A stretch of 64,000 nucleotides of DNA, taken from positions 45,948,218-46,012,217 of the forward strand of contig CM055909.1 of assembly GCA_029582155.1 (NCBI GenBank), in the 5' to 3' direction. This document shows, piece after piece, positions 40,418 to 64,000 of this stretch (its first letter is position 1; each line of letters starts with the position of its first letter). Source of the DNA: Panopea generosa (taxonomy: Eukaryota; Mollusca; Bivalvia; Adapedonta; Hiatellidae). A program made the position numbers and the translations under genes. The notes under the pieces are model-generated. The model was given only the letters and a program-made list of their open reading frames with translations. It was not told the DNA's origin and ran no database searches.

Positions 40418-40424
40418 GGGGGGG

Positions 40425-40530: not shown

Positions 40531-40564
40531 GCAGTTTGCTTGAAATTAGTTTACATAATACTAC

Positions 40565-40672: not shown

Positions 40673-40679
40673 TTTAAAC

Positions 40680-41615: not shown

Positions 41616-41679
41616 AAATAAGGCGTCGATTGTTTAGTATTTGGATATGCGATCTGCTGTCCGTCTCGGGATATGCAAA

Positions 41680-42475: not shown

Positions 42476-42489
42476 AACAATCTTTAAAA

Positions 42490-42640: not shown

Positions 42641-42654
42641 TAATGATTACGATG

Positions 42655-43215: not shown

Positions 43216-43489
43216 TTTCTTTGTAATTGCCGCGATCTGGTTACATAAATATGGATTACACATTTTAAATCATAATTGCCTTGTTGAAATTTGGGTAAAT
43301 GCAAGCTCCCTTTCACCATAGCATGAATGACAATATTCATATAGCTGACCAGTTGTAAAATACTTTAAACATACAAAAGGTCGGCAAAAAGTATTTAAGT
43401 GCAGCCTATTTTAAGAATGGGGATTTGTTTTTAAGCTTAACACTCCGATTGTAATATCGAAGTTTCGTCACAATTTGGTGTATTTAACA

Positions 43490-43880
43490 AACCAACCTGG
43501 ATGCCATGTATCAAATGTTAGGCGTTGAAAAGCAACATATTTATACTAAGGTCTACATTTACCAGTCAAAATGGATACCATATATCATGTGTTAGGTGTT
43601 GAAAAGCAACAAATTTATACTAAGGTCTACCTCTACCAGTCAAAATGGATGCCATATATCATATGTTAGGTGTTGAAAAATAACAGATTTATACCAAGGT
43701 TTACCTCAACCAGTCAAAATGGAAGCCATATATCATATGTTAGGTGTTGAAAAGCAACAGATTTATACCAAGGTCTACCTCTACCAGTCAAAATAGATGC
43801 CATATACAATATGTTAGGTGTTGAAAAGCAACAGATTTATACTAAAGTTTACCTCCACCAGTCATACCGAATGCCACCAA
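43490..43880 (+). repeat. 74-bp tandem array, five units, derived from a SINE tail
   Basis: The unit is TAGGTGTTGAAAAGCAACAG, then ATTTATACCAAGGTCTACCT, then CTACCAGTCAAAATGGATGC, then CATATATCATATGT. The parts CTACCAGTCAAAATGGATGC and TGTTGAAAA correspond to the 3' body of the Leu-type SINE (CCACCAATAAAACTGG-like, then TGTTGAAAATGGTG). The array looks like amplification of a SINE 3' end. Confidence 0.75.
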
Positions 43881-44064
43881 TCACTGATATTACACAGATA
43901 ATGTGCAAAAAAACATCATGTTATCCTGAGGTCCGTCTCCACCATAAAAACTGGATGCCATAATGTGTAACATATTCCGAGTTCTCTACAACCAGTAAAA
44001 CTGGAGCTCTCAGGTTTCTTTGCCATTGAGTTTAAATAAATTTGTAAATATATAACTAAAGCTG

Positions 44065-44410
44065 GGCATTAGTGCAGTGAATGGAATCAAAGCCGCTTAC
44101 GCAAGAGGTGGTGTGTTCGATCGCAGCTCGGCTTAGATGCCTCTAAAAAAATACAGTTCGATATATATAACCTAGTGTGTGTTAAACGGCGTCAAATGTC
44201 TCCATTAACTATCACTACTGAGGTCACGGGTTCAAACTCTGCTTATTCCAAAGATGTTTTGCCTGCAACTTGTGGAAAAATGGCTGTTCTACTAATTATG
44301 TAAGAATTATGTTGAGGATTTCATCCACCAATAAAACTTGTTGCATTTATAACCTGCTGATGTGTTGAAAATAATCAGATTCATTCTGTGTTCTTCAACC
44401 GACAAAAAAG
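44065..44410 (+). mobile_element. SINE relics: tRNA-like head and Leu-type SINE body
   Basis: 44065-44140 has GGGCATTAGTGCAGTGAATG and GGTGTGTTCGATCGC. 44200-44400 has ACTATCACTACTGAGGTCAC, GGGTTCAAACTC (B-box), and TTCATCCACCAATAAAACTT, then GTGTTGAAAATAA. Two different families stand side by side. Confidence 0.5.
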
Positions 44411-44511
44411 GAAGTCCATGTTACAAATTACTTAATGAAAATGTTTTAAAACACATCAGTGTCACCGAATTGATAACTTAATGAACATTTAATCATGTAC
44501 CAATATATTAC

Positions 44512-44589
44512 CTGATTTGGTATGTCGCCCAAGATTTATACAATCAGATATGATGGTCACATTAGTACATGTATAACAGTCAATGGCAT
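44512..44589 (-). CDS. Ly6/uPAR (three-finger) domain exon, apparently intact
   Basis: The 78-nt minus-strand exon has a good acceptor (TTTTTTACACAG) and donor (AATCAG then GTAATA). It is open in phase 1-1 and reads AIDCYTCTNVTIISDC, then INLGRHTKS. Ly6/uPAR family domains, which are usually secreted or GPI-anchored, begin with such a (L/I)xCYxC motif, with later cysteines in CT and DC contexts, and this first exon is often phase 1. The later exons with the CCxxDxCN end were not found. A broken copy lies at 44825-44890. It may be a working exon of a larger gene or a well-preserved relic. Confidence 0.45.
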
Positions 44590-44824
44590 CTGTGTAAAAA
44601 ATAAACAAGACATCAAATCTTTTTTGTGATTATATGAAAAACACCAGAACCATTTTAAGATCTTCCTCCACATATAAAATTGGTTACCATAGATTTATGT
44701 GACCTGTAATTTGTTGAACATTTTCACAAACATGTCTGTGAAACACAAATGATGATAAGTTGATTAACATTAAATATCTTTTTTGATTGTTATTAAATTA
44801 TAAACATGTACCAATTATAAACAT

Positions 44825-44895
44825 GTACTACTATATTACCTGGTTTGGTGAACACGCTGCTGTGATTCCTACAATCAGATAGGTTCAGTCAAGGG
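44825..44895 (-). pseudogene. Broken duplicate of the Ly6-like exon
   Basis: The minus-strand sequence aligns with the 44512-44589 exon and keeps the donor (AACCAG then GTAATA). It reads DALD, then a stop, and resumes as SDCRNHSSVFTKP. The YTCTNVTII part is deleted. It lies about 315 bp from the intact copy, with matching flanks, which shows a local segmental duplication. Confidence 0.5.
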
Positions 44896-45574
44896 CGTCC
44901 ATGTGAAAAACAAACAAGGCGTCATCAAATTATATTAAATACAACAATATTTGTGTTAGAAAATAATGGGCTTTCTTTCTTCTGATACAGTCTTATTTAA
45001 GAAATAGATTTCTAAAGTTCAATGATAGCAAACTCATTTTAAGAACGAAACCCTACGTTGACAAATGATAACTTCTCTTTCATTAAACATTGCTTAAAAT
45101 TATAAGTTTGTTTTGGTGTGTTTATTTGAATATTTATCGTCTTTTTAATGTCAACAAGGACGAACAGACACTCGGGTAGCCTATCCACTCTTTCCTGGGA
45201 ACCAGTACTTAAAAACACAATGAATAAATGAATGGTGTTTCACATCAAGGCCAGACATTTAAGTATTGTCATTTTGTGCAGGTTACGCTAATGATAGAAT
45301 GATAACTTTCCCACTTAAATCACCAGTGAGAGACAAGTAACGATATGATGCAATGGCGTATATCCATCATCATGGAGACTGTTTAATTAGTTCTCTAGAA
45401 AGTAAGATTACAGAGCTGGAGAACAATAGTGATAACAATTACAATTATTAAAAGGACGGCCCCAACCGACATATGTGGTTATTCAGGTGATGGTGATGAT
45501 ATATAGCATGTTTGATTAGAATCAGATGAAAACTGTAGTAGGAGTTGAGGCCACAAGTTACATATGTATATTCG

Positions 45575-45640
45575 GATAGACAGACAGATAGATGGATGGA
45601 TGGGCAGTCAGACAGACGAATGGACAGACAGACAGTTCAA
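45575..45640. repeat. GATA/GACA-type microsatellite
   Basis: GGATAGACAGACAGATAGAT, then GGATGGATGGGCAGTCAGAC and AGACGAATGGACAGACAGAC, form a short imperfect tetranucleotide tract. Confidence 0.7.
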
Positions 45641-45769
45641 ACACTATATGTCCTCCGGGTCTTCGAAACAAGAGGGCATAAAAATATATTGAGTTAGAAA
45701 GAAAGAGATTGAGAGACATATCTGTAACGATCGGAAAGAAAGATCTATAAAATGAAAGAGATACAGAGA

Positions 45770-46660
45770 ATTAGAGTGTGTGAGTGACAAAGGAAAAAGG
45801 TGAGTGTGAGGCGGAAAGAGTGAGTGTGAGAGGGAAAGAGTGAGTGTGAGAGGGAAAGAGTGAGTGTGAGAGGGAAAGTGTGAGTGTGAGAGAGGGGAAG
45901 AATTCGTGTGAGAGGGGGAAAGAGTGAATGTGAGAGGGGGAAAGAGTGAATGTGAGAGGGGGAAATAGATGAGAAGGAAAGAGGGTGTGAGAAAAGGAAA
46001 GTGTGAGAGTGAAAAGGCGAGTGTAGCAAGAAACGAGTGGGAAGGGGAGCGAGTGTGAGGGGAAAAGAATGAGTGTGAGAGAGGGAAAGAATGGGTGTGA
46101 GAGGGGGAGATGGGGATGTGAGAGAGGATGAAAATAGTGCGAGAGGAAAAAAATGAGAAAGAGGGAAATAGTAACCGAGAGGGAAATGGTAAGTGTGAGG
46201 GAAAAGTGAGTGTATGAGGGAAATAATTAGTGCAAGACAGAAAGAGTGAGTGTGTGAGAGCGAAATATAATTGTAATAGAAGAAATAGCGAGTGTGAGAG
46301 GGAACGAGTGAATATGAGAGGGAAAGAGTGAGTCTGGAGGGGGAAACACTGAGAGGGTGAAAGACAGAGTGACAGTGTGACAGAGGGAAAGAGTGAGTGG
46401 GAGAGGGAAAGAGCAAATTTGTGAGGGGGGAATGGAGAAAGAAAGAGTGTGAGATATGTAAATAGTGTGATAGGGGAAAGAGTGAGTGTGAGGGAGGGAA
46501 ACAGGGAGCATGAGAAGAAACGAGTGAGTGAGAGGGAAAAATAGAATGTGAAATGAGGAAATAGTGTGCGAGGGAAATGGAGAGTGCGAGGGGAAAAGTG
46601 ACGGGGAGATGGTAATTTAGTGAGTGTGAGAGAGAGAGGGGAAGTTTGAGAGGTGGAATG
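45770..46660. repeat. Purine-rich array of about 20-bp units (GA/GT strand bias)
   Basis: Units like GAGTGAGTGTGAGAGGGAAA repeat for about 0.9 kb. They are regular at 45810-45890 and degenerate afterwards. The plus strand is almost free of C, so the minus strand gives long Ser/His/Leu/Pro frames (up to 223 codons) with no meaning. The composition favours triplex or other unusual DNA structure. Confidence 0.85.
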
Positions 46661-46676
46661 ACTTAGTGCAAGATGG

Positions 46677-49262
46677 GGACACCATTTTTAAAATAGGTGT
46701 TTCCCTGAATATTAAAGTAAGAGCTTTTATGCTTCAGCAATGAACGGTTTACTGCTTCGTAAAAAAGCAATACCATATGTAGCTAGTTTCTTTCGACGTA
46801 AGTTGCAAGAAGACTGCTTGAGATTTTTAGCGTCAAAGCGTACTTAAAACCTCCGAGGAGCTTAATTGCATTGGGGGGAGACTGCATTTCGACAAGGATT
46901 CTTTCTAACGATAGTCTTTGGGAAGGCTTGTTTTTGAAACTCGTTGGCATATTTATTGTGCTAGAACTCCGGATTGTTCCATGCACAATAGTTTTAGTCT
47001 GATGCTTTTAGTTTGAAACCGTTCTCAAACGTAACAGGGTAGTTTTGTGCTGGAACTGGATTTTTTTTAACTTAGTTCGAAAACTTAGGTTTGGAACAGT
47101 TTCCAAACGTATGAGTGTATATTTATGCTGGAACTGAGCATTGTTGCAAGCAAAGAGTTTTGTTATTATATAGTTTGAAACCGTTCTCAAACAATAACTT
47201 TATTTTCTAGCTAAAACTTGGCTTTGTTTCATGCACTTTAGTTTAATTTGAAGTCTAAGGTTTGAAACAGTCTTCAAACATATAGGTGTACTCTTATGCT
47301 GGAACTGAACAGTGTTCCAGACATACAGTTTTGGTTTGAGTTTGAAACAAGTCTCAGATGTATGCTGTCCAGACACGTCGTCTGAACAGCTGGTCTCATT
47401 ATTAAAATACCGGTAGTGTTGAACAACAGTTAACTATACAGGGTTTGAAACATTATACTGTATATAGTTGATTGGTATGATCATTTGTCTGTATGATTTC
47501 TAAATATTAGAATCATTTTATTATCTTTATTTTGTTTGAAGTTTACAAATCATGAGGCAAGAAACGTGAGGAAAATTTGTATATTATATAGTTTGAACAA
47601 AATTGTTTAACATAGTTTAAAGCTAGGTTGTTTCAGTCGTCTTACAGAAGATCCCGTTTTTAGTTTCAAGATACTCGCCCAACATCTTGACACATTATAA
47701 ATTTAAAATGCAAAAATAAAATCACATTTTTACGCTCGATTCTAACAAAAATATTTTTTTATTCAAAATGCAAATAAAAAACTTATTTGTACTCCAGGAT
47801 TCAGAATCTTTATTTCTATGCGTATTTATTCAATTTCTAAATAAAGATCTAAACAGTCACGATTTTATTTGTATAGACTTGTCATACCTAATACCGCAAG
47901 TTTAAAATATTTTCAACCATGTAAAGAATTATGTCACTAACAAACAGTAATAAGGTTAGCAGTAGCAGTAGAAGTAGATTGTTAGTTTTAGTTTTCATTG
48001 TTATTGTTATTGTGTTATTGTGTTATTATGTTATTATGTTATTATGTTATTGTGTTAATGTTATTGCTATTAGCATTAACAGTAGCATTAGTATTAGCTT
48101 TACATTGATATTAAAGATTGATTGCCAGTTTTACGTGTACATATTGCTTATTACTGTTCATTATTGACACCATTCTTTACATGGTTGAAAATAGGGGATT
48201 GTGTCTTCAATGGATTAAGCTGTAAAAACAGCCTAACTTGAAACTATATTAAATAATTTTGTTCAAACTATATAATATATATAAATTTTCCTCAGGCTTC
48301 TTGCCTCATGATTCGTAAACGTCAAACAAAAAAAATATAATAAAATGATTCTAATATTTAGAAATCATACAGACAATCATATCAATCAACTATTTACAGT
48401 ATAATGTTTCAAACCCTGTAAAGTTGAACTAACTGTTGTTCAACACTATTTTCATAATGAGACCAGCTGTTCAGACAACGTGTCTTGACAGCATTTCTTT
48501 GCGACTTGTTTCAAACTCAAACCAAAACTGTATGTCTGGAACAATGCTCAGCTCAAGCATAAAAATACACCTATATGTTTGAAGACTTTTTTAAACATAC
48601 GTCTTCAAACTAACCTAAAGTGCATGAAACAAAGCCAAGCTTCAGCACGAAAATAAAGTTATTGTTTGAGAACGGTTTCAAACTAATAACTAACAAAACT
48701 GTATGCTTGGAACACTGCTCAGTTCCAGCATAAATATACACTTATATGTTTGGAGACTGTTCCAGACCTAAATATTCAAACTAAGATTAATGTCCAGTTC
48801 CAGCACAAAATTAAACTTATGTTTGAGAACGGTTTCAAACTAAAAGCATCAGACTAAACTAATGTGCATGAAACAATCCTCAGTTCCAGCACAACAGATA
48901 TTCCTATGAGTTTCAAACAAGCCTTCCCAAAGCCTATCACTAGAGAGAATCCTTGTCGAAGTGCAACCCAAAGCGATTAAGCTCTTCCAAGGTTTCAAAG
49001 TACACATTGACGCTGAAAATCTGAAGCAGACATATTGCAACTTGTGTCGAAAGGAATTAGACTAAATATGTTATTACTCTATTAGGAAGCAGTAAACCGT
49101 CCTTCTTTAAGTCGTATGTATGTAGTTCTATGGTTTTTAGTCCCTCCGCCAGGTTATCCTGGGGGCACATTAGACTTTGAACTAAGTCACGAAAAGACCT
49201 TCACTAAGTCATGAAAACATTGACTTTATATTCAGGAAAACACCTATTTAAAAATGGTGTCC
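46677..49262. mobile_element. 2.6 kb palindromic repeat (two inverted family-X arms)
   Basis: The left end GACACCATTTTTAAAATAGG, TGTTTCC and the right end CACCTATTTAAAAATGGTGT pair exactly inverted. The arms pair over about 46677-47640 and 48230-49262 (AAGCCTTCCCAAAG, CAGCTGTTCAGAC, TTGAACAACAGTTAACTA and others). A second inner pair, CAACCATGTAAAGAAT and ATTCTTTACATGGTTG, lies at 47915 and 48170. The left arm holds about 270 extra bp. The loop carries a TTATTG tract. Each arm is homologous to 4557-5170. Confidence 0.7.
47995..48070. repeat. TTATTG/TTATTA microsatellite in the palindrome loop
   Basis: CATTGTTATTGTTATTGTGT, then repeated TATTATGTTA, forms the short loop region between the palindrome arms. 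Confidence 0.75.
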
Positions 49263-49410
49263 AATTCATGATTAATGAATAATATATCAATCATTGATTA
49301 TAATTGTTTTATTCATCTTTTTATGATGAATTATCTTTTAAAACTTATATCTGGTATAATATTGTGTAATAATAGCGAAAAATAGAGTTTATAACCTCTT
49401 CTTATAATAC

Positions 49411-49756
49411 AGATTTGACATAATGTAATGAAGTATCTACATAATATAATAAACTTTCGACAAGACATAATAAGGTTTCGACATAACGTAATGAAGTATC
49501 TACATAATATAATAAACTTTCGGCAAGATATAATAAAGTTTCGACATAATGTAATGAAGTATCTACATAATATAATAAACTTTCGACAAGACATAATAAG
49601 GTTTCGACATAACGTAATGAAGTATCTACAGAATATAATAAATTTTGACAAGATATAATAAAGTTGACAAAATGTAATGAAGTATCTACATAATATAATA
49701 AACTTACGACAAGATATAATAAATTTTCGACATAATGTGATGAAGTATCTACACAA
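49411..49756. repeat. 63-bp minisatellite, about 5.5 units
   Basis: The unit is GACATAATGTAATGAAGTAT, then CTACATAATATAATAAACTT, then TCGACAAGACATAATAAGGTTTC. It encodes 21-residue repeats on the plus strand (MKYLHNIINF, then RQDIIRFRHNV) and Tyr/Leu/Cys-rich ones on the minus strand. 63 is a multiple of three, so the open frames are expected by structure. A degenerate continuation reaches about 49940. Confidence 0.85.
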
Positions 49757-50354
49757 TATAATGACGTATCTACATAATGTAATAAACAGTCTACATAATA
49801 TAACAAAGTATCTACAAAATGTATTATGAAGTATTGAAATAATGTAATAACGTATCTACATAATATAATAAACAAAGCACATAATATATTGATGAATGCA
49901 CATAATATATTGATGAATGCACATAATACATATAAAATGGACCACATAAGACAGCTATGGCATTCCATAAAACAGCTATGGCGTTCCATATTTCTGCCTA
50001 TTTCGACACTGTCTTCCTTCCCAATGCAATCCTAGCAAAACAAATGCAATAACTCAAGCATGCTGGCTAACACGATCCTCAAGCTTGTGAGCTCTTGAAC
50101 TATTTGATTATCCTTTTACATAAAATGTGTCCTCCATTGTCTAAGACGCTATTTCAAGATAATTAAATATTGTCTCACTGCTGAGGTCTCAGTGTTTATA
50201 TGTTACTCTTATATTGCGTAGGTTTTTCCTACGTCCATATTACTTACAAGATAAATGTACAGTATAACAGTACATACTGTAAGATAATATTTATTAATAA
50301 AATCTTGACCTGTCTTTAAGTGTGACAGGAGAGTTAAAGAGACATCTATAGGGA
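49757..50354. other. Degenerate repeat tail and a SINE scrap
   Basis: ATAATATATTGATGAATGCA occurs twice near 49890. 50130-50260 has CATTGTCTAAGACGCTATTT, CAAGATAATTAAA and CTCACTGCTGAGGTCTCAG, a Leu-type SINE head. No gene. Confidence 0.4.
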
Positions 50355-50932
50355 TCGAAAATAAATATCTATTATAAAAAGAGAGTGGCAGAGATACCTA
50401 GATAGTGAGAGAGATTGAAGAGAGTGACAGTTATCGAGCTTACGCATTTATAAATACTCACCTGTTATACATCACTCAGAATATGACGTCCCCGAAATCG
50501 CCACTGCGCCCTTCAGTTGTACATCACTCCGAAAAAAGTCCCATAAATTGCCATTGCGCCCGTCAGTTGTACATCTCTCCAGAAGATGTCCCGTGTCATG
50601 TTAGCAGCATCTGTAAAGGCGGGGCAGTTTTCATATCCCGTATCATGTTAGAGGCACAAGTACGGGCATGGCTGTGTTTGAATCCCGTATCATGTTAGAT
50701 GCAACAGTACTGACGTAGCTGTGTTCGAACCTAGTGTCATGTTAGCAACACATGTAAAGGCGGGGGGGGGTTCGAATCCCGTATCATGTTGGATGTCGCT
50801 GTGTTTGAATCCCGTATCATGTTAGATGCACCAGTACTGGCGTGGCTATGTTCGAATCCAGTGTCATGTTAGCAGCACCTGTAAAGGCGGGGCAGTGTTC
50901 AAATCCCGTATCATGTTAGATGCACCAGTACG

Positions 50933-51264
50933 GTGAAAATAAATATCTATTATAGATAAAGAGAGGATACCTAGATAGTGGGAGAGTTTGAAGAGAGCGA
51001 CAGTAAGTGAGCTTTGCATTTATTTATGCTCACCTGTTCAGACTCCATAAATCGCCATTGCGCCCATCAGTTCACTCAGAATGTGACATCCCCCAAAACG
51101 CCACTGCACCTGTCAGTTGTACATCACTCCGAAAGACGTCCCCCAGATTGCCATTGCGACTGTCAGTTGTACATCTCTCCAGAAGACGTACCCCAAATTG
51201 CCATTGCGCCCGGAAGTTATGCATTACATAAAAGCTATGTCATGTTAGCAGCACTTGTAAAGGC
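50933..51264 (+). repeat. Higher-order block with 50-bp repeats, reference copy
   Basis: It starts GTGAAAATAAATATCTATTA and TAGATAAAGAGAGGATACC, then carries GAGCTTTGCATTTATTTATG. Three to four 50-bp units follow (GCCATTGCGACTGTCAGTTG, TACATCTCTCCAGAAGACGT, CCCCCAAATT), and it ends at the SINE. Further copies begin near 54431, 55996, 57285 and 60506. A diverged one begins at about 50355, and a 5'-truncated one at about 62007. The 60506 copy lacks most 50-bp units. Confidence 0.85.
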
Positions 51265-51534
51265 GGGCCCAATTAGCTCAGTCGGTTACGCGTCTGACTA
51301 TCAATCCAGGGGTCGTGAGTTCGAATCCCCCGCCTGGCAACAGTCTCCACGATGATAATGTCTCATTATCATTTGTCTCTCACCACTAATTCAAGTGGGA
51401 AATTTATCAGTTACTTGCGGAGATGGGCTGTGCTCGAGTACTGGTTAATCCCACGAAACAGTGGTTAGGTTAACTGATAGTCTGTTAGCCCTCGATGGCA
51501 TAAAAATGATGCTAAATATTCAATCAATCAATCT
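51265..51534 (+). mobile_element. tRNA-derived SINE in satellite, copy 1
   Basis: The head has CCAATTAGCTCAGTCGGTTA (A-box, matching TRGCNNAGYNGG), GACTATCAATCCAGG and GTGAGTTCGAATCCCCCG (B-box). The body has AATGTCTCATTATCATTTGT, CAGTTACTTGCGGAGATGG and CTCGAGTACTGG. The tail is GATGCTAAATATTCAATCAA, then TCAATC. Acceptor and anticodon stems pair poorly, and a body follows, so it is a SINE and not a tRNA gene. A loop reading of the anticodon would be ATC. Confidence 0.8.
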
Positions 51535-54500
51535 AATCCAGTGTCATGTTAGCAGCACTTGTAAAGGCAGGGCAGTGTTCAGATCCCATATCATGTTAAA
51601 TGCACCAGTAAGGGGGTGGCTGTGTTCGAATCCCATGTCAAGTTAGCAACACCTGTAAAGGTGGGGCTGTATTCAAATCCCGTGTCATGATTACAGCACC
51701 TGTAAAGGTGGGGCTGTGTTCCAATCCCATATCATGTTAGATGCACCAGTACGTGCGTGGCTGTGTTCGAATCCAGTGTCATGTAAGCAGCATATGTAAA
51801 GACATGGCTGTGTTCGAATCCTGTGTCAAGTTAGCAGCACCTGTAAAGGCGGGGCTGTGTTCAAATCCCGTGTCATGATTACAGCACCTGTAAAGGCGGG
51901 GCTGTGTTCGAATACCGTATCATGCTAGATGCACCAGTACGTGCGTGGCTGTGTTCGAATCCAGTGTCATGTTAGCAGCACCTGTAAAGGCGGGGCTGTG
52001 TTCGAATCTCGTATCATGTTAGATGCACCTGTAAAGGCATGGCTGTGTTCGAATCCCGTGTCATGTTAGCAGCACCTGTAAAGGCATGGCAGTGTTCGAA
52101 TCCCGTATCATGTTAGATGCACCAGTACGGGCGTGGCTGTGTTCGAATCCAGTGTCATGTTAGCAGCACCTGTAAAGGCAGGGCGGTGTTCGAATCCCGC
52201 AGCAAGTTAGATGCACCACTACGGGCTTGGCTGTGTTTGAATCCCGTATCATGTTAGCAGCACCTGTAAAAGCGGGGCAGTGTTCGAATCCCGTAGCATG
52301 TTAGATGCACCAGTATGGGTGTGGCTGTGTTCGAATCCCATATCAAGTTAGCAACACCTGTAAAGGTGGGGCTGTGTTCAAATCCCGTGTCATGATTACA
52401 GCACCTGTAAAGGTGGGGCTGTGTTCGAATCCCGTATCATGTTAGATGCACCAGTACGTGTGTGGCTGTGTTCGAATCCGGTGTCATGTTAGCAGCACCT
52501 GTAAAGGCGGGGCTATGTTCAAATCCCGTGTCATGATTACAGCACCTGTAAAGGCGGGGCTGTGTTCGAATCCAGTACCATGTAAGATGCATCAGTACGT
52601 GCGTGGCTGTGTTCGAATCCAGTGTCATGTTAGCAGCACCTGTAAAGGCGGGGCTGTGTTCGAATCCCGTATCATGTTAGATGCACCTGTAATGGCATGG
52701 CTGTGTTCGAATCCCGTGTCATGTTAGCAGCACCTGTAAAGGCGGGGCTTTGTTCGAATCCCGTACCATGTTAGATGCATCAGTACGTGCGTGGCTGTGT
52801 TCGAATCCAGTATCATGTTAGCAGCACCTGTAAAGGCGGGGCTGTGTTCGAATCCCGTATCATGTTAGATGCACCTGTAAAGGCATGGCTGTGTTCGAAT
52901 CCCGTGTCATGTTAGCAGCACCTGTAAAGGCATGGCAGTGTTCGAATCCCGTATCATGTTAGATGCACCAGTACGGGCGTGGCTGTGTTCGAATCCCGTG
53001 TCATGTTAGCAGCACCTGTAAAGGCCGGGCGGTGTTCGAATCCCGCAGCATGTTAGATGCACCAGTACGGGCTTGGCTGTGTTGGAATCCCGTATCATGT
53101 TAGCAGCACCTGTAAAAGCGGGGCAGTGTTCGAATCCCATAGCATGTTAGATGCACCAGTAAGGGTGTGGCTCTGTTCGAATCCCGTGTCATGTTAGCAG
53201 CACCTGTAAAGGCAGGGCAGTGTTCGAATCCCGAAGCAAGTTATATGCACCAGTACGGGCGTGGCTGTGATCGAATCCCGTGTCATGTTAGCAGCACCTG
53301 TAAAGGGCTGGCATTGTTCGAATCCCGTATCATGTTAGATGCACCAGTACGGGCGTGGCTGTGTTCGAATCCCGTGTCATGTTAGCAGCACCTGTAAAGG
53401 CCGGGCGGTGTTCGAATCCAGCAGCAAGTTAGATGCACCAGTACGGGCTTGGCTGTGTTTGAATCCCGTATCATGTTAGCAGCACCTGTAAAAGCGGGGC
53501 AGTGTTCGAATCCCGTAGCATGTCAGATGCACCAGTATGGGTGTGGCTGTGTTCGAATCCCGTGTCATGTTAGCAGCACCTGTAAAGGCAGGGCAGTGTT
53601 CGAATCCCGAAGCATGTTATATGCACCAGTACGGGCGTGGCTGTGGTCGAATCCCTGTCATGTTAGCAGCACCTGTAAAGGCGTAGCAGTGTTTGAATCC
53701 CGCAGCATGTTAGATGCACCGATACGGGCGTTGCTATGTTCAAATCCGTGTCTTGTTAGCAGCACCTGAAAAGGCGGGGCAGTGTTTGAATCCTGCAGCA
53801 TTTTAGATGCACCAGTACGGGCATGGCTGTGTTCGAATCCCGTGTCATGTTAGCAGCACCTGTAAAGGCGTGGCAGTGTTCGAATCCCGCAGCATGTAAG
53901 ATGCACCAGTATGGGTGTGGCTGTGTTCGAATCCTGTGTCATGTTAGCAGCACCTGAAAAGGCGTGGCAGTGTTCGAATCCCGTACCATGTTAGATGCAC
54001 CAGTAGGGATGTAGCTGTGTTCGAATCCCGTGTCATGTTAGCAGCACCTTTAAAGGCGGGGGGGTGTTCAAATCCTGTATCATGTTAGATGCACAAGTAC
54101 GGGCATGGTTGTGTTCGAATCCCGTGTCATGTTAGCAGCACCTGTAAAGGCGTGGCAGTGTTCGAATCCCGTATCATGTTAGATGCACCAGTACGGACAT
54201 AGCTGTGTTCAAATCCCGTGTCATGTTAGCAGCACCTGTAAAGGTGGGGGGGTGTTCGAATCCCGTAACATGTTGGATGCACCAGAACGGGTGTGGCTGT
54301 GTTTGAATCCCGTATCATGTTAGATGCACCAGTACGGGCGTGGCTATGTTCGAATCCAGTGTCATGTTAGCAGCACCTGTAAAGGCGGGGCAGTGTTCGA
54401 ATCCCGTATCATGTTAGATGCACCAATACGGTGAAAATAAATATCTATTATAGATAAAGAGAGGATACCTAGATAGTGGGAGAGTTTGAAGAGAGCGACA

Positions 54501-54763
54501 GTAAGTGAGCTTTGCATTTATTTATGCTCACCTGTTCAGACTCCATAAATCGCCATTGCGCCCATCAGTTCACTCAGAATGTGACATCCCCCAAAACGCC
54601 ACTACACCTGTCAGTTGTTCATCACTCCGAAAGACATCCCCCAGATTACCATTGCGACTGTCAGTTGTACATCTCTCCGGAAGACTTCCCCCAAATTGCC
54701 ATTGCGCCCAGTAGTTGTGCATTACATAAAAGCTATGTCATGTTAGCAGCACTTGTAAAGGCG

Positions 54764-55033
54764 GGCCCAATTAGCTCAGTCGGTTACGCGTCTGACTATC
54801 AATCCAGGGGTCGTGAGTTCGAATCCCCCGCCCGGCAACAGTCTCCGTGATGATAATGTCTCATTATCATTCGTCTCTCACCACTGATTCAAGTGGAAAA
54901 GTTATCAGTTACTTGCGGAGATGGGGTGTGCTCGAGTACTGGTTAATCCCACGAAACAGTGGTTAGGTTAACTGATAGTCTGTTAGCCCTCGATGGCATA
55001 AAAATGATGGTAAATATTCAATCAATCAATCTA
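54764..55033 (+). mobile_element. tRNA-derived SINE in satellite, copy 2
   Basis: Near-identical to copy 1, with the B-box GAGTTCGAATCCCCCGCCC and intact A-box. It stands at the same position in its higher-order unit. Confidence 0.8.
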
Positions 55034-55487
55034 AACCCGTGTCATGTTAGCAGCACTTGTAAAGGCAGGGCAGTGTTCAGATCCCATATCATGTTAAATG
55101 CACCAGTAAGAGGGTGGCTGTGTTCGAATCCCATGTCAAGTTAGCAACACCTGTAAAGGTGGGGCTGTGTTCAAATCCCGTGTCATGATTACAGCACCTG
55201 TAAAGGTGGGGCTGTGTTCGAATCCCGTATCATGTAAGATGCACCAGTACGTGCGTGGCTGTGTTCAAATCCAGTGTCATGTAAGCAGCATATGTAAAGA
55301 CATGGCTGTGTTCGAATCCTGTGTCAAGTTAGCAGCACCTGTAAAGGCGGGGCTGTGTTCAAATCCCGTGTCATGATTACAGCACCTGTAAAGGCGGGGC
55401 TGTGTTCAAATCCCGTATCATGTTAGATGCACCAGTATGGATGTAGCTGTGTTCGAATCCCGTGTCATGTTAGCAGCATCTTTAAAG

Positions 55488-55537
55488 GCCGGGGGGGGGG
55501 GGGGGGGGGAGGGTGTGTGTGGGTGTGGGTGTGTGTG
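55488..55537. repeat. Poly-G plus GT-rich tract inside the satellite
   Basis: A run of about 20 G is followed by AGGGTGTGTGTGGGTGTGGG and TGTGTGTG, in a monomer with the AGCAGCATCTTTAAAGGC variant. A similar but shorter tract is at 61430-61470, in the equivalent monomer. Confidence 0.8.
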
Positions 55538-56327
55538 TTCAAATCCCATATCATGTTAGATGCATCAGTACGGACATAGCTGTGTTCGAATCCCGTGTTA
55601 TGTTAGCAGCACCTGTAAAGGTGGGGGGGTGTTCGAATCCCGTATCATGTTGGATGCACAATAACGGGTGTGGCTGTGTTTGAATCCAGTGTCATGTTAG
55701 CAGCATCTGTAAAGGCGTGGCAGTGTTCGAATCCCGTATCATGTTAGATGCACCAGTACGGATGTAGCTGTGTTCGAATCCCGTGTCATGTTAGCAGCAC
55801 CTTTAAAGGCAGGGGGGGGGTGTTCAAATCCCGTATCATGTTAGATGCACAAGTACGGGCATGGTTGTGTTCGAATCCCGTGTCATGTTAGCAGCACCTG
55901 TAAAGGCGTGGCAGTGTTCGAATCCCGTATCATGTTAGATGCAACAGTACGGACACAGCTGTCGAATCCCGTGTCATGTTAGATGCACCAGTACGGTGAA
56001 AATAAATATCTATTATAGATAAAGAGAGGATACCTAGATAGTGGGAGGGTTTGAAGACAGCGACAGTAAGTGAGCTTTGCATTTATTTATGCTCACCTGT
56101 TCAGACTCCATAAATCGCCATTGCGCCCATCAGTTCACTCAGAATGTGACATCCCCCAAAACGCCACTTCACCTGTCAGTTGTACATCACTCCGAAAGAA
56201 GTCCCCCAGATTGCCATTGCGACTGTCAGTTGTACATCTCTCCAGAAGATGTCCCCCAAATTGCCATTGCACCCGGTAGTTGTGCATTACATAAAAGCTA
56301 TGTCATGTTAGCAGCATTTCTAAAGGC

Positions 56328-56599
56328 GGGCCCAATTAGCTCAGTCGGTTACGGGTCTGACTATCAATCCAGGGGTCGTGAGTTCGAATCCCCCGCCCGG
56401 CAACAGTCTCCGTGATGATAATGTCTCATTATCATTCGTCTCTCACCACTGATTCAAGTGGGAAAGTTATCAGTTTTTTGCGGAGATGGGGGTGTGCTTG
56501 AGTACTGGTTAATCCCAGGAAACAGTGGTTAGGTTAACTGATAGTATGTTAGCCCTCGAAGGCATCAAAATGATGCTAAATATTCAATCAATCAATCTA
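56328..56599 (+). mobile_element. tRNA-derived SINE in satellite, copy 3
   Basis: It has the same structure, with GGTTACGGGTCTG in place of GGTTACGCGTCTG and CAGTTTTTTGCGG in the body. It is preceded by GCAGCATTTCTAAAGGCGGG, a variant shared with copies 4 and 6. Confidence 0.8.
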
Positions 56600-57617
56600 A
56601 TCCCGTGTCATGTTAGCAGCACCTGTAAAGGCAGGGCAGTGTTCAGATCCCACATCAGGTTCAATGCACCAGTAAGGGGGTGGCTGTGTTCGAATCCCAT
56701 GTCAAATTAACAACACCTGTAAAGGTGGGGTTGTGTTCAAATCCCGTGTCATGATTACAGCACCTGTAAAGGTGGGGCTGTGTTCGAATCCCGTATCATG
56801 TTAGATGCAACAGTACGTGCGTGGCTGTGTTCGAATCCAGTGTCATGATAGCAGCACCTGTAAAGGCGGGGCTGTGTTCAAATCCCGTGTCATGATTACA
56901 GCACCTGTAAAGGCGGGGCTGTGTTCGAATCCCGTACCATGTTAGATGCACCAGTACGTGCGTGGCTGTGTTCGAATCCAGTGTCATGATAGCAGCCCCT
57001 GTAAAGGCGGGGCTGTGTTCGAATCCCGTATCATGTTAGATGCACCTGTAAAGGCATTGCTGTGTTCGAATCCCGTGTCATGTTAGCAGCACCTGTAAAG
57101 GCATGGCAGTGTTCGAATCCCGTATCATGTTAGATGCACCAGTACGGGCTTGGCTGTGTTCGAATCCCGTATCATGTTAGCAGCACCTGTAAAGGCGTGG
57201 CAGTGTTCGAATCCCGTATCATGTTAGATGCACCAGTACGGACACAGCTGTCGAATCCCGTGTCATGTTAGATGCACCAGTACGGTGAAAATAAATATCT
57301 ATTATAGATAAAGAGAGGATACCTAGATAGTGGGAGGGTTTGAAGACAGCGACAGTAAGTGAGCTTTGCATTTATTTATGCTCACCTGTTCAGACTCCAT
57401 AAATCGCCATTGCGCCCATCAGTTCACTCAGAATGTGACATCCTCCAAAACGCCACTGCACCTGTCAGTTGTACATCACTCCGAAAGACGTCCCCCAGAT
57501 TGCCATTGCGACTGTCAGTTGTACATCTCTCCAGAAGACGTCCCCCAAATTGCCATTGCACCCGTTAGTTGTGCATTACATAAAAGCTATGTCATGTTAG
57601 CAGCATTTCTAAAGGCG

Positions 57618-57888
57618 GGCCCAATTAGCTCAGTCGGTTACGCATCTGACTATCAATCCAGGGGTCGTGAGTTCGAATCCCCCGCCTGGCAACAGTCTCC
57701 GTGATGATAATGTCTCATTATCATTCGTCTCTCACCACTGATTCAAGTGGGAAAGTTATCAGTTATTTGCGGAGATGGGGGTGTGCTTGAGTACTGGTTA
57801 ATCCCAGGAAACAGTGGTTAGGTTAACTGATAGTATGTTAGCCCTCGAAGGCATAAAAATGATGCTAAATATTCAATCAATCAATATA
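57618..57888 (+). mobile_element. tRNA-derived SINE in satellite, copy 4
   Basis: It shares CAGTTATTTGCGG and the GGGGGTGTGCTTGAG body variant with copies 3 and 6. A-box and B-box are intact. Confidence 0.8.
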
Positions 57889-60704
57889 ATCCCGTGTCAT
57901 GTTAGCAGCACCTGTAAAGGCAGGGCAGTGTTCAGATCCCATATCAGGTTCAATGCACCAGTAAGGGGGTGGCTGTGTTCGAATCCCATGTCAAGTTAGC
58001 AACACCTGTACAGGTGGGGTTGTGTTCAAATCCCGTGTCATGATTACAGCACCTGTAAAGGTGGGGCTGTGTTCGAATCCCGTATCATGTTAGATGCACC
58101 AGTACGTGCGTGGCTGTGTTCGAATCCAGTGTCATGATAGCAGCACCTGTAAAGGCGGGGCTGTGTTCAAATCCCGTGTCATGATTACAGCACCTGTAAA
58201 GGCGGGGCTGTGTTCGAATCCAGTGTCATGATAGCAGCCCCTGTAAAGGCGGGGCTGTGTTCGAATCCCGTATCATGTTAGATGCACCTGTAAAGGCATT
58301 GCTGTGTTCGAATCCAGTGTCATGTTAGCAGCACCTGTAAAGGCATGGCAGTGTTCGAATCCCGTATCATGTTAGATGCACCAGTACGGGCGTGGCTGTG
58401 TTCGAATCCCGTGTCATGTTAGCAGCACCTGTAAAGGCGGGGCATTGTTCGAATCCCGCAGCATGTTAGATGCACCAGTACGGGCTTGGCTGTGTTTGAA
58501 TCCCGTATCATGTTAGCAGCACCTGTAAAAGAGGGGCTGTGTTCGAATCCCGTAGCATGTTAGATGCACCAGTATGGGTGTGGCTGTGTTCGAATCCCGT
58601 GTCATGTTAGCAGCACCTGTAAAGGCAGGGCAGTGTTCGAATCCCGAAGCATGTTATATGCACCAGTACGGGCGTGGCTGTGGTCAAATCCCGTGTCATG
58701 TCAGCAGCATCTGTAAAGGTGTAGCAGTGTTCGAATTCCGCAGCATGTTAGATGCACCGATACGGGCGTCGCTATGTTCGAATCCCGTGTCATGTTAGCA
58801 GCACCTGAAAAGGCAGGGCAGTGTTTGAATCCTGCAGCATGTTAGATGCACCAGTACGGGCATGGCTGTGTTCGAATCCCGTGTCATGTAAGCAGCACCT
58901 GTAAAGGCGTGATAGTGTTCGAATCCCGCAGCATGTAAGATGCACCAGTATGGGCGTGGCTGTGTTCGAATCCTGTGTCATGTTAGCAACACCTGAAAAG
59001 GCATGGCAGTGTTCGAATCCCGTATCATGTTAGATGCACCAGTAGGGATGTAGCTGTGTTCGAATCCCGTGTCATGTTAGCAGCACCTTTAAAGGCGGGG
59101 GGGTGTTCAAATCCCATATCATGTTAGATGCACAAGTACAGGCATGGTTGTGTTCGAATCCCGTGTCATGTTAGCAGCACCTGTAAAGGCGTGATAGTGT
59201 TCGAGTCCCGCAGCATGTAAGATGCACCAGTACGGGCGTGGCTGTGTTCGAATCCCATGTCATGTTAGCAGCCCCTGTAAAGGCGGGGCTGTGTTCGAAT
59301 CCCGTATCATGTTAGATGCACCTGTAAAGGCATTGCTGTGTTCGAATCCCATGTCATGTTAGCAGCACCTGTAAAGGCATGGCAGTGCTCGAATCCCGTA
59401 TCATGTTAGATGCACCAGTACGGGCGTGGCTGTGTTCGAATCCCGTGTCATGTTAGCAGCACCTGTAAAGGCGGGGCATTGTTCGAATCCCGCAGCATGT
59501 TAGATGCACCAGTACGGGCTTGGCTGTGTTTGAATCCCGTATCATGTTAGCAGCACCTGTAAAAGCGGGGCAGTGTTCGAATCCCGTAGCATGTTAGATG
59601 CACCAGTATGGGTGTGGCTGTGTTCGAATCCCGTGTCATGTTAGCAGCACCTGTAAAGGCAGGGCAGTGTTCAAATCCCGAAGCATGTTATATGCACCAG
59701 TACGGGCGTGGCTGTGGTCAAATCCCGTGTCATGTCAGCAGCATCTGTAAAGGTGTAGCAGTGTTCGAATTCCGCAGCATGTTAGATGCACCGATACAGG
59801 CGTGGCTATGTTCGAATCCAGTGTCATGTTAGCAGCACCTGTAAAGGCATGGCAGTGTTTGAATCCCGCAGCATGTTAGATGCACCAGTACGGGCATGGC
59901 TGTGTTCGAAACCCGTTTCATGTTAGCAGCACCTGTAAAGGCGTGATAGTGTTCGAATCCCGCAGCATGTAAGATGCACCAGTATGGGCGTGGCTGTGTT
60001 CGAATCCTGTGTCATGTTAGCAGCACCTGAAAAGGCGGGGCTGTGTTCAAATCATGTATCATGTTAGATGCACCAGTACGGACATAGCCGTGTTCGAATC
60101 CCGTGTCATGTTAGCAGCACCTGTCAAGGTAAGGGGGTGTTCGAATCCCTTGTCATGTTAGCAGCACCTTTAAAGGCGGGGGGGGGTGTTCAAATCCTGT
60201 ATCATGTTAGATGCACAAGTACGGGCATGGTTGTGTTCGAATCCCGTGTCATGTTAGCAGCACCTGTAAAGGCGTGGTAGTGTTCGAATCCCGTATCATG
60301 TTAGATGCACCAGTACGGACATAGCTGTGTTCGAATCCCGTGTCATGTTAGCAGCACTTGTAAAGGTGGGGGGGTGTTCGAATCCCGTATCATGTTGGAT
60401 GCACCAGAACGAGCGTGGCTATGTTCGAATCCAGTGTCATGTTAGCAGCACCTGTAAAGGCGGGGCAGTGTTCGAATCCTGTATCATGTAAAATACACCA
60501 GTACGGTGAAAATAAATATCTATTATAGATAAAGAGAGGATACCTAGATAGTGGGAGAGTTTGAAGAGAGCGACAGTAAGTGAGCTTTGCATTTATTTAT
60601 GCTCACCTGTTCAGACTCCATAAATCGCCATTGCGCCCATCAGTTCACTCAGAATGTGACATCCCCCAAAACGCTATGTCATGTTAGCAGCACTTGTAAA
60701 GGCG

Positions 60705-60973
60705 GGCCCAATTAGCTCAGTCGGTTACGCGTCTGACTATCAATCCAGGGGTCGTGAGTTCGAATCCCCCGCCCGGCAACAGTCTCCGTGATGATAATGT
60801 CTCATTATCATTCGTCTCTCACCACTGATTCAAGTGGAAAAGTTATCAGTTACTTGCGGAGATGGGGTGTGCTCGAGTACTGGTTAATCCCACGAAACAG
60901 TGGTTAGGTTAACTGATAGTCTGTTAGCCCTCGATGGCATAAAAATGATGCTAAATATTCAATCAATCAATCT
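60705..60973 (+). mobile_element. tRNA-derived SINE in satellite, copy 5
   Basis: It is almost the same as copy 2, including the shared AGTGGAAAAGTTATC and GTGTGCTCGAGTACTGG variants. This fits duplication of the larger unit. Confidence 0.8.
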
Positions 60974-61429
60974 AAACCCGTGTCATGTTAGCAGCACCTG
61001 TAAAGGCAGGGCAGTGTTAAGATCCCATATCATGTTAAATGCACCAGTAAGAGGGTGGCTGTGTTCGAATCCCATGTCAAGTTAGCAACACCTGTAAAGG
61101 TGGGGCTGTGTTCAAATCCCGTGTCATGATTACAGCACCTGTAAAGGTGGGGCTGTGTTCGAATCCCGTATCATGTTAGATGCACCAGTACGTGCGTGGC
61201 TGTGTTCAAATCCAGTGTCATGTAAGCAGCATATGTAAAGACATGGCTGTGTTCGAATCCTGTGTCAAGTTAGCAGCACCTGTAAAGGCGGGGCTGTGTT
61301 CAAATCCCGTGTCATGATTACAGCACCTGTAAAGGCGGGGCTGTGTTCGAATCCCGTATCATGTTAGATGCACCAGTACGGATGTAGCTGTGTTCGAATC
61401 CCGTGTCATGTTAGCAGCATCTTTAAAGG

Positions 61430-61470
61430 CGGGGGGGGGGGGGTGTGTGTGTGTGTGTGTGTGTGTGTTC
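61430..61470. repeat. Poly-G plus GT microsatellite inside the satellite
   Basis: About 13 G followed by 13 GT dinucleotides, in the monomer homologous to that at 55488. The length difference shows ongoing slippage after the larger unit was duplicated. Confidence 0.8.
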
Positions 61471-62227
61471 CAATCCCATATCATGTTAGATGCACCAGTA
61501 CGGCCATAGCTGTGTTCGAATCCCGTGTTATGTTAGAAGCACCTGTAAAGGTGGGGGGGTGTTCGAATCCCGTATCATGTTGGATGCACAATAACGGGTG
61601 TGGCTGTGTTTGAATCCCGTATCATGTTAGATGCACCAGTACGGGCGTGGCTATGTTCGAATCCAGTGTCATGTTAGCAGCACCTGTAAAGGCGTGGCAG
61701 TGTTCGAATCCTGTATCATGTTAGATGCACCAGTACGGATGTAGCTGTGTTCGAATCCCGTGTCATGTTAGCAGCACCTTTAAAGGCAGGGGGGGGGTGT
61801 TCAAATCCCGTATCATGTTAGATGCACAAGTACGGGCATGGTTGTGTTCGAATCCCGTGTCATGTTAGCAGCACCTTTAAAGGCAGGGGGGGGGGTGTTC
61901 AAATCCCGTATCATGTTAGATGCACAAGTACGGGCATGGTTGTGTTCGAATCCCGTATCATGTTAGATGCACCAGTACTGACACAGCTGTCGAATCCCGT
62001 GTCATGTCCATAAATCGCCATTGCGCCCATCAGTTAACTCAGAATGTGAAATCCCCCAAAACGCCACTGCACCTGTCAGTTGTACATCACTCCGAAAGAT
62101 GTCCCCCAGATTGCCATTGCGACTGTCAGTTGTACATCTCTCCGGAAGACATCCCCCAAATTGCCATTGCACCCGGTAGTTGTGCATTACATAAAAGCTA
62201 TGTCATGTTAGCAGCATTTCTAAAGGC

Positions 62228-62500
62228 GGGCCCAATTAGCTCAGTCGGTTACGCGTCTGACTATCAATCCAGGGGTCGTGAGTTCAAATCCCCCGCCTGG
62301 CAACAGTCTCCGTGATGATAATGTCTCATTATCATTCGTTTCTCACCACTGATTCAAGTGGGAAAGTTATCAGTTATTTGTGGAGATGGGGGTGTGCTTG
62401 AGTACTGGTTAATCCCAGGAAACAGTGGTTAGGTTAACTGATAGTATGTTAGCCCTCGAAGGCATAAAAATGATGCTAAATATTCAATCAATCAATTTAA
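62228..62500 (+). mobile_element. tRNA-derived SINE in satellite, copy 6
   Basis: The B-box is changed to GAGTTCAAATCCC, which loses the conserved CG step. Otherwise it is like copies 3 and 4. Confidence 0.8.
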
Positions 62501-64000
62501 TCCCGTGTCATGTTAGCAGCACCTGTAAAGGCAGGGCAGTGTTCAGATCCCATATCAGGTTAAATGCACCAGTAAGGGGGTGGCTGTGTTCGAATCCCAT
62601 GTCAAGTTAGCAACACCTGTAAAGGTGGGGCTGTGTTCAAATCCCGTGTCATGATTACAGCACCTGTAAAGGTGGGGCTGTGTTCGAATCCCGTATCATG
62701 TTAGATGCACCAGTACGTGCGTGGCTGTGTTCGAATCCAGTGTCATGATAGCAGCACCTGTAAAGGCGGGGCTGTGTTCAAATCCCGTGTCATGATTACA
62801 GCACCTGTAAAGGCGGGGCTGTGTTCGAATCCCGTACCATGTTAGATGCACCAGTACGTGCGTGGCTGTGTTCGAATCCAGTGTCATGATAGCAGCCCCT
62901 GTAAAGGCGGGGCTGTGTTCAAATCCTGTATCATGTTAGATGCACCTGTAAAGGCATTGCTGTGTTCGAATCCCGTGTCATGTAAGCAGCACCTGTAAAG
63001 GCATGGCAGTGTTCGAATCCCGTATCATGTTAGATGCACCAGTACTGGCGTGGCTGTGTTCGAATCCCGTATCATGTTAGCAGCACCTGTAAAAGCGGGG
63101 CAGTGTTCGAATCCCGTAGCATGTTAGATGCACCAGTATGGGTGTGGCTGTGTTCGAATCCCGTGTCATGTTAGCAGCACCTGTAAAGGCAGGGCAGTGT
63201 TCGAATCTCGAAGCATGTTATATGCACCAGTACGGGCGTGGCTGTGGTCAATTCCCGTGTCATGTTAGCAGCATCTGTAAAGGCGTAGCAGTGTTCGAAT
63301 TCTGCAGCATGTTAGATGCACCGATACGGGCGTGGCTATGTTCGAATCCCGTGTCATGTTAGCAGCACCTGAAAAGGCAGGGCAGTGTTTGAATCCCGCA
63401 GCATGTTAGATGCACCAGTACGGGCATGGCTGTGTTCGAATCCCGTGTCATGTTAGCAGGACCTGTAAAGGCGTGATACTGTTCGAATCCCGCAGCATGT
63501 AAGATGCACCAGTATGGGCGTGGCTGTGTTCGAATCCTGTGTCATGTTAGCAGCACCTGAAAAGGCGTGGCAGTGTTAGAATCCCGTATCATGTCAGATG
63601 CACCGATACGGGCGTGGCTATGTTTGAATCCCGTGTCATGTTAGCAGCACCTGAAAAGGCGGGGCAGTGTTTGAATCCCGTAGCATGTTAGATGGAGCAT
63701 GTACGGGCATGGCTGTGTTCGAATCCTGTGTCATGTTAGCAGCACCTGTAAAGGCGTGGCAGTGTTCGAATCCCGCAGCATGTAAGATGCACCAGTATGG
63801 GCGTGGCTGTGTTCGAATCCCGTATCATGTTAGCAGCACCTTTAAAGGCGGTGGGGGTGTTCAAATCCCGAATCATTTTAGATGCACAAGTACGGGCATG
63901 GTTGTGTTCGAATCCCGTGTCATGTTAGATGCACAAGTATGGCCATAGCTGTGTTCGAATCCCGTGTCATGTTAGCAGCACCTTTAAAGGCGGTGGGGGT

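What the first reader, a model, noticed from the sequence alone, without database searches (positions are those of the whole stretch)
50590..64000. Satellite in which most 47-bp monomers carry a polymerase III B-box-like site
GTTCGAATCC matches the TFIIIC-binding B-box of tRNA genes (GGTTCGANNCC), and it recurs about every 47 bp over 13 kb, roughly 200 times, without matching A-boxes. Dense TFIIIC sites without polymerase III (ETC-like sites) are known to act in chromatin organisation in yeast and animals. A satellite made of them would be an unusual chromatin feature. It might also be derived from the T-arm of the SINE embedded in the same array.
Basis: partly seen in the sequence, partly recalled or inferred. 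Interest (0 to 1): 0.8.

Follow-up and report, generated by a model that had tools for sequence, protein, structure and literature searches.

The report
Ordinary satellite carrying tRNA-promoter-like motif
A 47-base repeat, copied hundreds of times at several sites in this genome, does carry half of the promoter that tRNA genes use; most of the evidence fits an inherited relic in an ordinary satellite, though the motif changes more slowly than its surroundings over long times, which deserves a binding test.

Summary
GTTCGAATCC occurs 137 times on the + strand of 50,589-64,000 (0.05 expected per window), in 132 of 205 near-complete 47-bp monomers; 161 of 205 fit GTTCRANYCC. Monomers have no A-box above chance.

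The array is a compound satellite. It continues about 23 kb past the window. Related arrays lie elsewhere on contig C16 and on C14, beside a duplicated segment; two segment copies showed no 47-bp units on the array strand in the 2.1 kb read, a third only six. The embedded SINE was inserted into an existing monomer and is not the motif's source: three of five array groups lack it.

Evidence on function is mixed. Across five array groups (1,780 monomers) the box is the most uniform 11-bp stretch, and in an older short block it differs about half as often as flanking DNA. But in recent duplicates the box mutates at the SINE's rate, and the base thought essential for TFIIIC (C56) decays as often as its tolerated neighbour (152 versus 171). 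Most likely a tRNA-like relic in an ordinary satellite. Weak long-term constraint, by TFIIIC or another factor, is not excluded. Short satellites that include box B are already known in snakes.

The parts
50589..64000 (+). Compound satellite: 47-bp monomers (A/B types, 94-bp period), interrupted by linker and SINE blocks; continues past the window to about 46.035 Mb of G000:C16
52621..52714 (+). Example stretch of two monomers (B then A type), each ending in GTTCGAATCC
51238..51267 (+). Partial monomer (positions 3-32) left of SINE copy 1; the monomer resumes at position 43 after the SINE, 10 bp missing, no target-site duplication seen
51268..51534 (+). SINE copy 1, tRNA-like head with A-box TAGCTCAGTCGG and B-box GTTCGAATCC, (AATC)n tail
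54766..55035 (+). SINE copy 2, A and B boxes intact
56331..56598 (+). SINE copy 3, A and B boxes intact; TTTT within 143 bp
57620..57887 (+). SINE copy 4, A and B boxes intact; next TTTT about 6.3 kb downstream
60707..60976 (+). SINE copy 5, A and B boxes intact
62231..62498 (+). SINE copy 6, A-box intact, B-box GTTCAAATCC
50934..51237 (+). Linker block with about 2.5 copies of a 50-bp repeat; further copies at 54432-54735, 55997-56300, 57286-57589, and shortened at 60507-60676 and 62008-62200
50357..50592 (+). Diverged linker copy (75% identity) at the left edge of the array

Best explanation
This is an ordinary, recently amplified compound satellite. A 47-bp unit that happens to contain, or inherited from a tRNA-like sequence, a T-arm/B-box-like 10-mer was multiplied by unequal exchange (inferred) beside or inside a segment that is itself duplicated along contig C16 (shown: beside copies of the segment the array is long, very short or not seen). 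In one lineage of arrays a genomic SINE was inserted into a monomer and, with a linker, was multiplied along with it (shown by copies and junctions). Because monomers lack an A-box, they should not by themselves be Pol III promoters (inferred); the SINE heads are the only complete A+B promoters found in the window array. The B-box-like sites may be able to bind TFIIIC weakly, but the sequence record shows no removal of mutated boxes on recent timescales, so dense TFIIIC occupancy is not needed to explain the array.
For: Recent colinear duplicates (16 pairs, of which one gave no scored sites): box non-CpG differences 16/1826, SINE 19/1944 (odds ratio 0.90, p 0.87), linker 33/2308, rest of monomer 174/6877. 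A window-only count on 5 of the 19 pairs points the same way: 7/749, 15/977, 17/772, 123/2823. C56 and R57 decay equally: 152 TG versus 171 CA of 1,780 monomers; 11 C-to-T versus 12 G-to-A in recent pairs, 17 versus 15 counting all changes. Box CpG differences (24/301) are not lower than SINE (11/192) or linker (7/144) CpGs. No A-box in monomers above chance; five units fold no better than shuffles and neighbouring monomers show at most a trace of pairing beyond shuffled partners. Beside segment copies at C16 61.48 and 62.88 Mb no monomer was found on the array strand in the 2.1 kb read, and at 59.77 Mb six units, four near-complete. The SINE is a dispersed family with 11-13 bp target duplications in 7 of 8 outside copies; the monomer tracts at C14, C16 29.04 and C16 35.85 Mb contain no SINE or linker.
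Against: The box is the most uniform 11-bp window raw and across five array groups (mean between-group difference 0.060 versus 0.235 at non-CpG sites, site-shuffle p 0.0001; B-type only 0.064 versus 0.213, p 0.0005). Box CpGs differ less than other CpGs of the monomer (24/301 versus 81/693). In the window, variant types per non-CpG site are similar (15 at 9 box sites, 52 at 30 others) but few box variants have spread to three or more copies (3 versus 35). In the older second block the box differs less than flanks (18/176 versus 540/3005, p 0.008), with the free position N59 the variable one (10/22).
Confidence: 0.6

Rival explanations
1. The box is a working TFIIIC site. Individual boxes are redundant, so single losses are tolerated, but arrays or units with intact boxes persist or spread better, as an ETC-like chromatin element.
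For: Lowest cross-array divergence of any 11-bp window; few box variants have spread in the window. In the older second block C56 is kept in 32 of 32 scored units (13 of 45 too incomplete to score) and N59 varies most. B-box clusters act in boundaries in S. pombe (PMC4502379, passages).
Against: C56 decays as fast as R57 in the main arrays; recent boxes mutate at the SINE rate; 111 of 592 monomers of the 35.85-Mb array have lost C56; two segment copies show no array in the stretch read. The first position of the 11-mer B-box is T instead of G.
Confidence: 0.15
2. The box is kept by something other than TFIIIC, for example a recombination or exchange motif that favours units containing it, as proposed for conserved motifs in nematode satellites.
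For: Same conservation data; the left ends of the arrays at C16 29.04 and 40.96 Mb begin at the box (two of five left ends printed). Precedent: PMC3694981 (abstract and section list).
Against: Alignment starts favour conserved stretches, so the end positions are biased; no direct test made.
Confidence: 0.15
3. The monomer is a degraded tRNA-like or older SINE head (D-arm remnant TGTTAGCAGCACC plus T-arm), expanded as in snake sSat3 satellites. This concerns origin and is compatible with the best explanation.
For: The second block ends in a unit with an A-box 21 nt before a B-box, exact at two of four loci and with one mismatch at a third. For four of five monomer versions the best alignment lies on the tRNA D-arm. 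The only permissive Rfam hit on 1 kb of array is tRNA-like mascRNA (E 5.4, not significant).
Against: Not significant: mean-score p 0.065 to 0.5, best-score p 0.05 to 0.5, against 18 E. coli tRNAs, with weak power (one of two positive controls failed). No tRNA by ARAGORN in the window and 12 loci (it misses the SINE heads too) or by Rfam in the window and 851 bp of L013.
Confidence: 0.45
4. The box derives from the T-arm of the SINE embedded in the array.
For: Exact shared GTTCGAATCCC; local alignment with the box held fixed p 0.08 for type A, 0.36 for type B.
Against: The SINE sits inside a monomer; three of five array groups have boxes but no SINE; no similarity outside the box (p 0.35 and 0.37).
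Confidence: 0.05

Closest known systems
Squam3-derived satellites (sSat3) of snakes (PMC10702118; passages, and one section)
   Same: Short tandem unit (67 nt) covering the 3' portion of a SINE head with promoter box B (so, I infer, without box A); alternating subvariants; loci with up to hundreds of units
   Different: There the unit is a known piece of a SINE, at thousands of loci in most snakes; here no progenitor SINE was found and the unit is 47 bp
PcH-sat of the limpet Patella (PMC11121367; abstract, and results section)
   Same: Satellite linked to a tRNA-type SINE
   Different: 179-bp unit with a 118-bp stretch of Nin-SINE, about 10% of the P. caerulea genome; not a box-B unit as far as the text I saw says
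S. pombe IR boundary elements with five B-boxes (PMC4502379; passages)
   Same: Clustered B-boxes
   Different: Five boxes at mapped boundaries with B-box-dependent function; here hundreds of boxes and no function shown
C. elegans extra-TFIIIC sites on CeRep3 (PMC6950938; passages)
   Same: TFIIIC sites without Pol III that lie on repeats
   Different: Interspersed putative tRNA pseudogenes with both box A and box B
CENP-B-box-like motif in nematode satellites (PMC3694981; abstract and section list)
   Same: Short motif conserved between otherwise different satellites
   Different: Different motif; proposed role in rearrangement

Membership tests
Satellite DNA with higher-order repeats | Long head-to-tail arrays, homogenised, with higher-order period | tested here: met
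   47-bp arrays in five array groups; the dimer period shows in the C16 40.96- and 46.0-Mb arrays only, not in the other three
Pol III type 2 promoter | A-box and B-box in the monomer | tested here: not met
   No exact A-box in window monomers; best consensus match is the commonest shuffle result
Pol III type 2 promoter | A-box and B-box in the embedded SINE | tested here: met
   A and B intact in 12 of 17 full copies of the extended array, 45 nt apart
ETC/COC-type TFIIIC sites | B-box consensus present without A-box | tested here: met
   161 of 205 window monomers fit GTTCRANYCC; the preceding base is T, not G
ETC/COC-type TFIIIC sites | TFIIIC bound without Pol III | not testable with these tools
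   No binding data
ETC/COC-type TFIIIC sites | Selective keeping of TFIIIC-critical bases | tested here: inconclusive
   Against. For:
SINE-derived box-B satellite (sSat type) | Unit is a contiguous piece of a SINE of the same genome | tested here: not met
   Not met for the embedded SINE; the search for another progenitor did not complete, so another SINE is not excluded
tRNA-derived repeat | Similarity to tRNA outside the T-arm | tested here: inconclusive
   Mean-score p 0.065-0.5 against 18 E. coli tRNAs, low power

The most novel reading that the evidence does not exclude
A satellite whose long-term turnover is steered by its Pol III B-box: single boxes are free to decay, yet units with a TFIIIC-competent box (C56 kept, N59 free) are the ones that persist across loci, making TFIIIC platforms without Pol III promoters concentrated on one chromosome, while co-amplified SINEs supply real promoters whose transcripts could read through kilobases of terminator-poor array.
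Probability: 0.13. Interest if true: 0.75.

Novelty: new member of a known kind. Interest (0 to 1): 0.36.

Why it matters
If the box only rides along, the case is a caution: a protein-binding motif visible in hundreds of monomers can look conserved because the rest of the monomer is stirred by exchange between subtypes, and a co-amplified SINE gives a neutral yardstick. If the slower long-term change of the box is real constraint, it would be a CENP-B-box-like case for TFIIIC, with SINE-free, SINE-bearing and nearly array-free copies of one segment as natural comparisons.

Tried and rejected
RNA structure: cmscan's only permissive hit on 1 kb of array is mascRNA-menRNA (E 5.4, 15.4 bits, gathering 42.5). 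Rejected as a functional fold: five units fold no better than shuffles (z -0.65 to 1.35), and the would-be acceptor stem pairs between neighbouring monomers as often as with shuffled partners in five of six sets; in the 29.04-Mb array it is slightly higher (0.777 against 0.771, sd 0.0025).

Window-only C56/R57 asymmetry (2 C-T versus 11 A-G, p 0.02) looked like B-box constraint. It is not reproduced in the five array groups (152 versus 171, p 0.32) or in the larger set of recent pairs (11 versus 12).

Parsimony on monomer trees: non-CpG box sites 1.8 or 2.2 steps against 4.0 elsewhere (p 0.016 on the tree built without the box), but with CpG sites included p 0.07 and the window at positions 6-16 has fewer steps. 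Private-variant counts between arrays were too few to use, and at the 2% threshold they ran against conservation of the box (4 at 9 box sites, 4 at 30 others).

Not in the counts: monomers near the SINEs of the 43.2-Mb array and of the right part of the 40.96-Mb array, seen only as SINE flanks (L033, L044, L046, L049, L050, L051; exact box in 12 of 25, 23 of 42, 26 of 53, 32 of 53, 18 of 42 and 32 of 52), and monomers with more than four gaps. The second blocks of three of the array regions were, by contrast, inside the stretches scanned and so add a few tens of units to the five-group counts.

Collections: exact monomer pattern absent from viral contigs and from genome contigs, which holds bacteria and archaea. 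Haemocyanin family search for the host group: no match and no control rang, so uninformative. Pfam on six ORFs: nothing above cut-off.

A literature search for 'satellite DNA', 'B box', 'TFIIIC' and 'tRNA-derived' together found 0 papers; related searches are. Open-access papers only.
Full report
OBSERVATION. GTTCGAATCC occurs 138 times in the window, 0.05 expected: 137 on the + strand of the array and one on the - strand at 3063-3072. Wraparound alignment cuts the array into 230 monomers, 205 of them near-complete. Of the 205, 132 carry the exact 10-mer, 161 fit GTTCRANYCC and 18 have lost the base that corresponds to C56 of tRNA. So 'roughly 200' is an overcount of exact sites, while the period (47 bp) and the missing A-boxes are right: exact A-boxes on the + strand occur only in six SINE heads, and the best monomer match is the commonest result of shuffling.

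ANATOMY. Monomers alternate between A and B types (94-bp period) in this array and the one at 40.96 Mb, but not in the other three arrays fetched. Six SINE copies and linker blocks with 50-bp repeats interrupt the window array. Each SINE sits where a monomer breaks off at position 32 and resumes near position 43: about 10 bp of monomer are missing and I see no target-site duplication. The SINE is a dispersed family (5,902 first-look candidates, 40 scored); 7 of 8 outside copies examined have 11-13 bp target duplications. In the extended array 12 of 17 full copies keep A and B boxes 45 nt apart. TTTT runs are rare on the + strand (four runs in the 13.4 kb), so a SINE transcript could run from 0.14 to 6.3 kb before one; this is potential only.

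GENOME CONTEXT. The window is G000:C16:45,948,218-46,012,217 in a 1.47-Gb assembly. The array runs on for about 23 kb, 608 monomers in all including partial ones. Further arrays lie at C14 50.79 Mb and C16 29.04, 35.85 and 40.96 Mb and C16 43.2 Mb. A box-independent core pattern has 1,667 matches with up to one mismatch and 0 in the reversed control; the 100 places listed are on C14 and C16, the rest are not listed. Arrays share flanks: a right-hand unit is found at eight C16 sites, the window's own included, and one C14 site, apart from a piece of about 190 bp that is spread over many contigs; 40 of 4,174 candidates were scored, so this is a lower bound. The longer colinear matches that I printed (only those above 78%) run from 78 to 93% identity; 900 bp on either side of the second block are 65 to 86% identical. 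Beside the unit at 61.48 and 62.88 Mb no 47-bp monomer was found on the array strand in the 2.1 kb read (a short inverted remnant is visible at 61.48 Mb); at 59.77 Mb there are six units, four near-complete. The array therefore looks like a local expansion that the segment can do without.

IS THE BOX CONSTRAINED? Raw: within types, non-CpG mismatches are 26/1817 in the box and 473/6308 elsewhere, and positions 37-47 are the best 11-bp window. In six array sets they rank first in five and eighth in the 35.85-Mb array (two of the six are parts of one array). Between five array groups (1,780 monomers) mean difference is 0.060 in the box and 0.235 elsewhere at non-CpG sites; site-shuffle p 0.0001, all sites 0.0003, but neighbouring sites are correlated (0.43) and the circular-shift test can only say rank 1 of 47. 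B-type monomers alone (1,363) give the same, p 0.0005. In the window the number of variant types per non-CpG site is similar in and outside the box (15 at 9 sites, 52 at 30), but only 3 against 35 have spread to three or more copies.

Against constraint: in recent colinear duplicates the box (16/1826) changes like the SINE (19/1944); it is the rest of the monomer (174/6877) that is fast, as expected if exchange between subtypes keeps importing old variants there (interpretation). The CpG in the box decays to TG in 152 and to CA in 171 of 1,780 monomers. B-boxes tolerate A at position 57 but, as I recall, not T at 56, so real TFIIIC constraint should make these unequal. Box CpGs do differ less than other CpGs of the monomer (24/301 against 81/693), but not less than those of SINE (11/192) or linker (7/144).

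For constraint: the right flank holds a second, short block of monomers at four loci. Of 45 units, 32 were complete enough to score; C56 is kept in all 32, 27 fit GTTCRANYCC, and the variable site is the one that B-boxes leave free. Aligned between loci, box sites other than the CpG and N59 differ in 7 to 11% of comparisons (C29-C35 8/88, C29-C46 10/96, C29-C14 6/88, C35-C46 10/88, C35-C14 9/80, C46-C14 10/88), flanks in 14 to 35%. For the two pairs C29-C35 and C46-C14, which share no locus, 18/176 against 540/3005, p 0.008; rest of block 159/704, faster than flanks (p 0.005); N59 10/22; the CpG 5/44, not different from flanks (p 0.32). The other two ways of pairing, summed by hand, give 19/176 against 751/2827 and 16/176 against 843/2858. 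Caveats: box columns were taken where at least one locus comes within three mismatches of the box, which favours low difference; numbers are small and tandem units exchange variants. I read this as a hint.

ORIGIN. The embedded SINE is not the source: it interrupts a monomer, is absent from three of five array groups, and shows no significant similarity outside the 11-mer. A tRNA-like origin is plausible but unproven: the second block ends in a unit with TAGCTCAGTGGG, exact at two loci, one mismatch at a third, absent at the fourth, 21 nt before a B-box. Monomer-to-tRNA alignments fall on the D-arm for four of five monomer versions, but mean-score p is 0.065 to 0.5 against 18 E. coli tRNAs and one of two positive controls fails. 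The search for a dispersed progenitor did not complete.

VERDICT. An ordinary compound satellite with a box-B-like relic is the best reading (0.6). Short satellites whose unit includes box B are known from snakes (PMC10702118), so the kind is not new; clustered B-boxes with boundary function are known from fission yeast (PMC4502379). What remains open is the slower long-term change of the box, which a TFIIIC binding assay or a related species would settle.

Noticed in passing
window 13670-19071: Two arrays of a 39-bp repeat in opposite orientation form a long inverted repeat (13954-16474 against 16604-19059, 77% identity) with a spacer of about 130 bp, fold-back-like.
   Followed up: partly
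window about 2990-3110, - strand: What reads as a second, different tRNA-type SINE head, with the only exact GTTCGAATCC outside the array.
   Followed up: partly
window about 36790-50590: Repeats and other sequence left of the array match the left flanks of other arrays: 36.8-40.3 kb (C16 29.04 Mb), 44.0-45.0 kb (C16 35.85 and 40.96 Mb), 45.8-46.7 and 50.0-50.6 kb (C14), so the shared segment is larger than the satellite (one search printed only the first 60 rows).
   Followed up: partly
L013:4129-4629, L022:8861-9302, L014:947-1373 (-), L023:8069-8572 (-): Short second block of diverged 47-bp units at four loci; it ends in a unit with A-box-like TAGCTCAGTGGG (exact at two loci) and is followed by GGTTCGAATCC (exact at two loci).
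   Followed up: partly
window 26824-28777: A 75-bp tandem array (about 26 copies, 88% matches) with long open frames in several overlapping reading frames.
   Followed up: no
C16 29.04- and 40.96-Mb array left ends (L012, L018): Both arrays start at the box (TGTTCGAATCCCGTATC) next to non-array sequence; could be an alignment effect or an exchange hot spot.
   Followed up: no
window array near 55490, 61430, 61790 and 61885: Poly-G and GT-run expansions inside monomers around positions 31-36.
   Followed up: no
L058 (C16 61.48 Mb): A short inverted remnant of the last monomer (CAGGTGCTGCAAATACGATAC) sits next to the right-hand unit.
   Followed up: no
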